Source: an uncultured Alphaproteobacteria bacterium (GTDB lineage: Bacteria; Pseudomonadota; Alphaproteobacteria; Rs-D84). Taken from it: a stretch of 64,000 nucleotides of DNA. The notes under the pieces are model-generated. The model did not search any database, was not told the DNA's origin, and saw only the letters and a list, made by a program, of their open reading frames with translations. The position numbers and the translations under genes are program-made. The DNA lies in the NCBI GenBank assembly GCA_949878575.1, contig CATLAX010000001.1, positions 1 to 64,000 on the forward strand, written 5' to 3'. Shown one piece after another: positions 53,269 through 53,404 of this stretch; position 1 is the stretch's first letter, and each line of letters starts with the position of its first letter.

Positions 53269-53404
53269 AAAGTTGTGGTTTGCGTGATGACGTGACTGAC
53301 ACCCACCGAGCGGGACCAAAACATTAAACGAAAGTTACAAGACGGGGTGGCACCGCGCATGGATTATTCCCAGCGCCCCCGGTATCACGAAAAAAGGGAC
53401 CGAA
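53269..53404 (+). promoter_or_regulatory. T-box-like riboswitch leader of aspS
   Basis: GGGGTGGCACCGCG at 53344-53357 plus CGCCCC completing the antiterminator-type fold; candidate Asp specifier GAC at 53298-53300 followed by A. Confidence 0.75.

What the first reader, a model, noticed from the sequence alone, without database searches (positions are those of the whole stretch)
53269..53404. T-box-like riboswitch upstream of aspS in an apparently alphaproteobacterial genome
Seen: TTGAGG-16-TATAAT promoter, then a ~136-nt leader with GGGGTGGCACCGCG (53344-53357). The leader downstream has CGCCCC, so GGGG/CCCC and GCG/CGC helices can form around a 7-nt TGGCACC bulge. This matches the T-box antiterminator architecture (UGGNACC bulge). 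Established: the bulge UGGN pairs with the tRNA NCCA end; tRNA-Asp has discriminator G73, so N should be C, and it is. A short upstream stem (53275-53279/53301-53306) has GAC followed by A on the 3' strand of its internal loop, a plausible Asp specifier. No U-tract lies between the motif and the ATG, so translational control is inferred. T-boxes are best known from Firmicutes, Actinobacteria and a few other groups; as far as I know an alphaproteobacterial aspS T-box is unusual.
Basis: partly seen in the sequence, partly recalled or inferred. Interest (0 to 1): 0.85.

Follow-up and report, generated by a model that had tools for sequence, protein, structure and literature searches.

The report
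Miniature alphaproteobacterial aspS T-box riboswitch
In front of the aspartyl-tRNA synthetase gene of a small-genome gut alphaproteobacterium sits an RNA element that looks built to read the anticodon and free end of uncharged tRNA; such T-box switches were thought nearly absent from this phylum, and this one is unusually small.

Summary
The motif is real and is a T-box element. The window belongs to a 945-kb genome of the gut genus Candidatus Enterousia (order Rs-D84, Alphaproteobacteria). Every aspS leader read from that genus and its near kin (65 distinct) has the core GGG-UGGCACC-GCGC...GCGCCCC. A covariance model built without the window's clade finds the site at E = 9e-17; 174 of 208 genomes of the order match. 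The specifier is GAC (Asp) in 55 species and AAC (Asn) in 9, with at least 8 changes and no other codon. This fits a non-discriminating AspRS: the genome has GatB, no AsnRS, and both tRNAs carry G73 opposite the bulge C. Relatives keep Stem II and IIA/B in front of aspS or of a second, archaeal-type AspRS; the window type has lost them, so it is a miniature variant. Control is probably translational, by pairing of the T-box bulge with the Shine-Dalgarno: well supported in relatives, only weakly in the window's own leader. tRNA response is untested.

The parts
53235..53262 (+). sigma-70-type promoter TTGAGG-16-TATAAT; start of transcript expected near 53268-53270
   Evidence: consensus match 10 of 12
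53277..53317 (+). ultrashort Stem I: C-stem GGUUU(G)CGU/GCGGGACC, K-turn GAU-GA/GA, apical stem CGUG/CACC, 9-nt loop
   Evidence: alignment of 61 leaders, covariation in C-stem and apical stem; leave-clade-out model. In this species the outermost apical pair is C-C and the C-stem has a bulged G
53286..53290 (+). 5' side of K-turn (GAUGA); 3' side GA at 53308-53309
   Evidence: G24 A25 and G43 A44 invariant in the 61 aligned rows of A1; three leaders left out of that alignment have UA instead of the 3' GA; K-turn known as near-universal T-box Stem I feature (PMC7583486)
53298..53300 (+). specifier codon GAC (Asp) in apical loop, followed by A
   Evidence: GAC in 55 and AAC in 9 of 64 species
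53331..53343 (+). conserved purine-rich linker AAAGUUACAAGAC (consensus AAAGUNAUAAAUC); no Stem II, IIA/B or regular Stem III
53343..53381 (+). T-box antisequestrator: CGGGG-[UGGCACC]-GCGC ... GCGC-CCCCG
   Evidence: seven pairs invariant and two covarying in 61 sequences, all paired
53348..53354 (+). T-box bulge UGGCACC; [quoted passage not shown]
   Evidence: invariant; both tRNAs have G73
53394..53402 (+). Shine-Dalgarno AAGGGACCG, partly complementary to the T-box bulge (UGG..CC with GG..CCG)
   Evidence: predicted alternative fold of the 3' domain, marginal in energy
53405..55159 (+). aspS, aspartyl-tRNA synthetase of bacterial type, 584 aa
   Evidence: NF001750 746 bits, TIGR00459 577 bits

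Best explanation
This is a cis-acting, tRNA-sensing T-box leader that regulates aspS. The codon GAC in the apical loop of an ultrashort, K-turned Stem I pairs with the anticodon GUC of tRNA-Asp. If that tRNA is uncharged, its GCCA end pairs with UGGC in the bulge, which holds the antisequestrator together and keeps the bulge away from the ribosome-binding site, so AspRS is made. If the tRNA is charged or absent, the bulge UGGCACC can pair with the Shine-Dalgarno and translation falls. In most congeners an added hairpin relays the same choice: bulge with B (GGUGCC), or B with C, or C with the Shine-Dalgarno. Shown by comparison: the structure, the specifier, the match to G73, the conservation, and the pairing options in relatives. 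Inferred: tRNA binding, sensing of charge, and translational output.
For: Exact core in every aspS leader read from the genus and its near kin, and in none of 40 aspS loci of other alphaproteobacteria. Covariation far above shuffled and slid controls; RNAalifold returns the same helices unprompted. Model built without the window's clade: 75 bits, E = 9.4e-17. 174 of 208 genomes of the order. Specifier only GAC or AAC, at least 8 changes; GatB present, no AsnRS, tRNA-Asp and tRNA-Asn with G73. Relatives carry leaders with Stem II and IIA/B in front of aspS or archaeal-type aspS. Strong Shine-Dalgarno sequestrators exclusive with the antisequestrator in archaeal-type aspS leaders and in L043(+) and L056. 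No terminator after the T-box. Shine-Dalgarno of aspS more complementary to the bulge than those of other genes, across the genus.
Against: RF00230 is far below its gathering score. Stem II and IIA/B, critical in the short-Stem-I ileS T-box (PMC10651847), are absent. In the window's own leader thermodynamic folding gives the antisequestrator by default (P = 0.78) and almost no change of Shine-Dalgarno accessibility (0.35 to 0.39), and its complementarity to the bulge is not exceptional among genes of the window (8 of 18 equal or better). G/A exchange at the first specifier base could also reflect a plain purine constraint. No expression or binding data.
Confidence: 0.8

Rival explanations
1. 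The T-box senses tRNA but acts mainly on transcription or mRNA stability, for example by leader cleavage or RNA-polymerase pausing, not on translation initiation.
For: The window's own leader has no clear Shine-Dalgarno sequestrator.
Against: No intrinsic terminator after the T-box; relatives have clear sequestrators that exclude the antisequestrator; strand C coevolves with the Shine-Dalgarno in congeners.
Confidence: 0.12
2. The leader of the window's own clade is a T-box that has lost regulation: tRNA may still bind, but expression is constitutive.
For: The B:C relay hairpin is missing in this clade, Stem II is gone, and the antisequestrator is predicted to form without tRNA.
Against: Core, K-turn and specifier remain fully conserved in the five sampled leaders of this short type (L002, L003, L032, L033, L046), and the 3' domain has a near-isoenergetic alternative that covers the Shine-Dalgarno.
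Confidence: 0.1
3. The hairpin is a tRNA-like operator bound by AspRS itself for feedback, as known for E. coli thrS (own knowledge), and not a T-box.
For: A 7-9 nt apical loop upstream of a synthetase gene superficially resembles an anticodon arm.
Against: The loop carries the codon (GAC or AAC), not the anticodon (GUC or GUU); the invariant UGGCACC bulge and K-turn have no role in such a model; relatives show Stem II and IIA/B including CCGTTA.
Confidence: 0.02
4. Chance resemblance or a misbinned, non-alphaproteobacterial contig.
For: The bare 13-mer allowing one mismatch is expected about 0.8 times per window.
Against: Conserved and covarying in over 150 genomes of the order; nearest aspS genes outside the genus are alphaproteobacterial.
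Confidence: 0.01

Closest known systems
Actinobacterial translational T-boxes with short or ultrashort Stem I (ileS of Nocardia farcinica and Mycobacterium tuberculosis; Sherwood et al. 2015 as cited in PMC7583486; TBDB class II, PMC7778990)
   Same: Short Stem I with K-turn, specifier in an apical loop, no elbow-binding IDTM, antisequestrator with UGGN bulge, probable control of translation.
   Different: Alphaproteobacteria; Asp/Asn specificity; no Stem II, no Stem IIA/B pseudoknot, no regular Stem III in the window type. Alphaproteobacterial relatives (L196, L198, L213-L217, archaeal-type aspS leaders) do have Stem II and IIA/B and are the closer match.
glyQS transcriptional T-box (Bacillus)
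   Same: Also lacks Stem II.
   Different: Has a long Stem I with the elbow-binding IDTM and a terminator; the window type has neither.
T-box control of the Asn transamidation pathway in Clostridium acetobutylicum (Saad et al. 2012, 2013; cited in PMC4206432)
   Same: T-box coupled to indirect Asn-tRNA synthesis, with tRNA-Asn as a signal.
   Different: Firmicute; the two-codon T-box recognises tRNA-Asn and tRNA-Glu, whereas here each leader has one codon that alternates between species.
leuA T-boxes of Geobacter and Pelobacter (PMC2494555)
   Same: T-boxes reported from Proteobacteria.
   Different: Deltaproteobacterial, Leu biosynthesis gene, described as typical T-box elements.

Membership tests
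T-box riboswitch (broad family) | Antiterminator/antisequestrator with 7-nt bulge UGGNACC | tested here: met
   invariant core and paired flanks in 61 leaders
T-box riboswitch (broad family) | Specifier codon matching the regulated gene | tested here: met
   GAC or AAC only, upstream of AspRS
T-box riboswitch (broad family) | Variable base of UGGN complementary to the discriminator base | tested here: met
   GAU-GA/GA in all 61 aligned rows; 3 further leaders have UA for the 3' GA
T-box riboswitch (broad family) | Rfam RF00230 gathering score | tested here: not met
   19.9 of 93 bits; a detection threshold of a long-Stem-I model, not a mechanistic feature
T-box riboswitch (broad family) | tRNA- and charge-dependent regulation | not testable with these tools
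   needs binding and reporter experiments
Short-Stem-I translational T-box (actinobacterial class II) | Specifier in apical loop of short Stem I without IDTM | tested here: met
Short-Stem-I translational T-box (actinobacterial class II) | Stem II with S-turn and Stem IIA/B pseudoknot | tested here: not met
   24-37 nt linker without conserved helix in the window type; matching sequence present in relatives by eye
Short-Stem-I translational T-box (actinobacterial class II) | Shine-Dalgarno sequestrator exclusive with antisequestrator | tested here: inconclusive
   clear in archaeal-type aspS leaders, L043(+) and L056; coevolution in most congeners; marginal in the window

The most novel reading that the evidence does not exclude
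A minimal T-box: tRNA is recognised by one apical codon on a K-turned hairpin plus the UGGC bulge, with neither the elbow-binding motif nor Stem II/IIA-B. It is fixed in an alphaproteobacterial lineage, and its specifier has switched repeatedly between tRNA-Asp and tRNA-Asn because one non-discriminating synthetase charges both.
Probability: 0.6. Interest if true: 0.82.

Novelty: new variant of a known kind. Interest (0 to 1): 0.72.

Why it matters
T-boxes are described as a mainly Gram-positive system; published surveys list them in Firmicutes, Actinobacteria, Chloroflexi, Deinococcus-Thermus and, among Proteobacteria, only deltaproteobacterial leuA (PMC2494555, PMC3766115), and TBDB ran its translational model on Actinobacteria (PMC7778990). 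A conserved set in Rs-D84 and in at least two further alphaproteobacterial families extends the range and shows that annotation with RF00230 misses it. The window-type leader is small enough to ask directly how little RNA is needed to decode a tRNA and sense its charge. Repeated Asp/Asn specifier switching in front of one synthetase is a natural experiment on which tRNA a non-discriminating enzyme should follow.

Tried and rejected
Rfam at gathering threshold found nothing at the site. The pattern GGTGGCACMGCGN{2,30}CGCCC over the class is not specific in GC-rich genomes (49 of 395 genomes hit, most looking like chance). Shine-Dalgarno accessibility by constrained folding of 61 full leaders gave no general switch (0.36 to 0.40). 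The fold energy of the leader is not unusual (z = 0.21). Suspected AsnRS in some congeners proved to be archaeal-type AspRS, 'aspartate--tRNA(Asn) ligase'. No terminator downstream of the T-box. Papers on Agrobacterium that mention T-boxes only cite other work. The donor of the T-box was not found: the genome search reaches only relatives, and protein searches with archaeal-type aspS and f97 aspS returned, where named, alphaproteobacterial or proteobacterial (including Rickettsiales) sequences.

Full report
WHAT IS THERE. The gene is aspS, AspRS of bacterial type (NF001750, 746 bits against a cutoff of 443). Rfam RF00230 does not reach its gathering score; with permissive settings it matches at 19.9 bits, convincing only over the 3' domain. 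It is the only RF00230-like site in this 945-kb genome.

WHERE IT COMES FROM. The closest aspS genes come from metagenome-assembled genomes titled Alphaproteobacteria, Rickettsiales, proteobacterium or Candidatus Enterousia scatequi. Enterousia belongs to the reduced-genome order Rs-D84 (PMC12306168). Outside the genus the nearest aspS genes are alphaproteobacterial too, so the gene looks native and the contig is not misbinned.

CONSERVATION. All aspS loci of the genus and its near kin (L043 and L056 belong to other genera of the family) contain the core; none of 40 aspS loci from other alphaproteobacteria does. 61 distinct leaders were aligned. RNAalifold, given no structure, returned the C-stem, the apical stem and the antisequestrator helices. 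Against shuffles, 91.7% of cells pair (75.5 +/- 0.8), 246 cells change on both sides (83 +/- 9) and the covariation score is 0.495 (0.197 +/- 0.012). Sliding the partner by one to three columns drops pairing to 35-56%. Shuffles ignore relatedness; the slid controls keep it. A model built without the window's clade finds the window at 75 bits, E = 9.4e-17; the next hit has E = 0.38. The full model matches 174 of 208 genomes of the order; the matches outside the genus that were opened and carry the core lie in front of aspS-type genes.

ANATOMY. From 5' to 3': a variable C-stem; K-turn GAU-GA/GA; four pairs; a 9-nt loop with GAC or AAC; a purine-rich linker AAAGUNAUAAAUC; and (A/G/C)GGG-UGGCACC-GCGC...GCGCCCC. 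The K-turn at the base of Stem I and the apical specifier of short Stem I are documented T-box features (PMC7583486). Between Stem I and the T-box there are only about 24-37 nt and no conserved helix, so Stem II, Stem IIA/B and a regular Stem III are absent.

WHAT IT READS. The specifier is GAC in 55 and AAC in 9 of 64 species; the AspRS tree needs at least 8 changes. A bare purine constraint on that base would also allow G/A exchange, so the pattern is consistent with tRNA choice and not proof of it. It fits the biology: the genome has GatB and no AsnRS (of 61 genomes searched only one, outside the order, passes the AsnRS cutoff). If Asn-tRNA is made through GatCAB (the route described in PMC4206432), the single AspRS must also charge tRNA-Asn. 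tRNA-Asp (GTC) and tRNA-Asn (GTT) both carry G73, which pairs with the invariant C of UGGC. That this AspRS is non-discriminating is inferred, not tested.

RELATIVES SHOW A FULLER T-BOX. Some Enterousia and related genomes hold a second, archaeal-type AspRS (NF003483, 'aspartate--tRNA(Asn) ligase'). Its leaders mostly have the same ultrashort Stem I with AAC, followed by sequence matching Stem II (GAAGAAGAAC), Stem IIA/B (CTTATTAGAACTTCCCGGG...GCCCGTTA), a Stem III and AAGG-UGGCACC-GCG...CGUCCUU (read by eye, not scored by a model; L113 and L119 have GAC and shorter leaders). In L043 two T-boxes stand back to back: aspS with GAC and archaeal-type aspS with AAC. Native aspS of other lineages in the order (L196, L198) and of two further alphaproteobacterial families (L213; L214, L215, L217) carries fuller leaders. 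A likely path is gain of a complete short-Stem-I T-box and later loss of its middle part in the Enterousia lineage; the donor was not found.

HOW IT MAY SWITCH. No terminator lies between T-box and ATG. In archaeal-type aspS leaders the strand that closes the antisequestrator (CGUCCUU) instead forms a long hairpin over the Shine-Dalgarno; enforcing the antisequestrator costs 7-11 kcal/mol. In L043(+) and L056 the bulge GGCACC pairs directly with the Shine-Dalgarno GGUGUC or GGGUGCC. In most Enterousia a further hairpin B:C (GGGUGCC with, for example, GGUGCCC) is inserted. B is GGTGCC in 52 of 54 and complementary to the invariant bulge; C can pair with B or with the Shine-Dalgarno. C and the Shine-Dalgarno fit better within than between species (-7.57 against -6.73 +/- 0.24, 2 of 5000 shuffles; one leader per Shine-Dalgarno type, 10 of 5000), for example GGGAAC with GUUGCCC and GGUGU with ACACC. 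These tests do not fully correct for relatedness. The window's own clade lacks B and C. There the isolated 3' domain's minimum-energy fold pairs UGG..CC of the bulge with GG..CCG of the Shine-Dalgarno, but the difference from the antisequestrator is about 1 kcal/mol, full-leader folding favours the antisequestrator, and the complementarity is not exceptional for this gene alone although it is for the genus (p = 3e-9 by a test that ignores relatedness). Translational control of the window's gene is therefore an inference from relatives.

RELATION TO KNOWN SYSTEMS. It meets the mechanistic tests of the T-box family that could be run. It fails the Stem II/IIA-B feature of the short-Stem-I translational class, where those parts are critical for tRNA binding (PMC10651847), so it is filed as a new variant of the T-box and not as a member of that class. 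Surveys list T-boxes in Firmicutes, Actinobacteria, Chloroflexi, Deinococcus-Thermus and deltaproteobacterial leuA (PMC2494555, PMC3766115). Searches of the held literature found no alphaproteobacterial aspS T-box. That library lacks most subscription papers and TBDB or RF00230 hit lists were not available, so novelty is likely and not certain.

Noticed in passing
L043 1528-1760 (-) and 1840-1949 (+): Two divergent T-box leaders back to back: one in front of bacterial-type aspS (GAC), one in front of archaeal-type aspS (AAC).
   Followed up: partly
L216 about 1500-1640 (-): In another family of the order, a T-box with a terminator-like hairpin and T-run stands in front of a gene that looks like TyrRS.
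   Followed up: no
L212 1501-1741 (-): In another alphaproteobacterial family, an RF00230 match above the gathering score (110 bits) with a terminator-like hairpin stands in front of a gene that looks like DAHP synthase.
   Followed up: no
genus-wide aspS leaders, about 4-12 nt before ATG: The Shine-Dalgarno is most often GGGACCA; its ACCA resembles a tRNA NCCA end and could compete for the UGG of the bulge.
   Followed up: partly
window 53116-53219: tRNA-Thr (GGT) and a terminator-like hairpin lie directly upstream of the aspS promoter; the same tRNA sequence lies upstream of aspS in several congeners.
   Followed up: no
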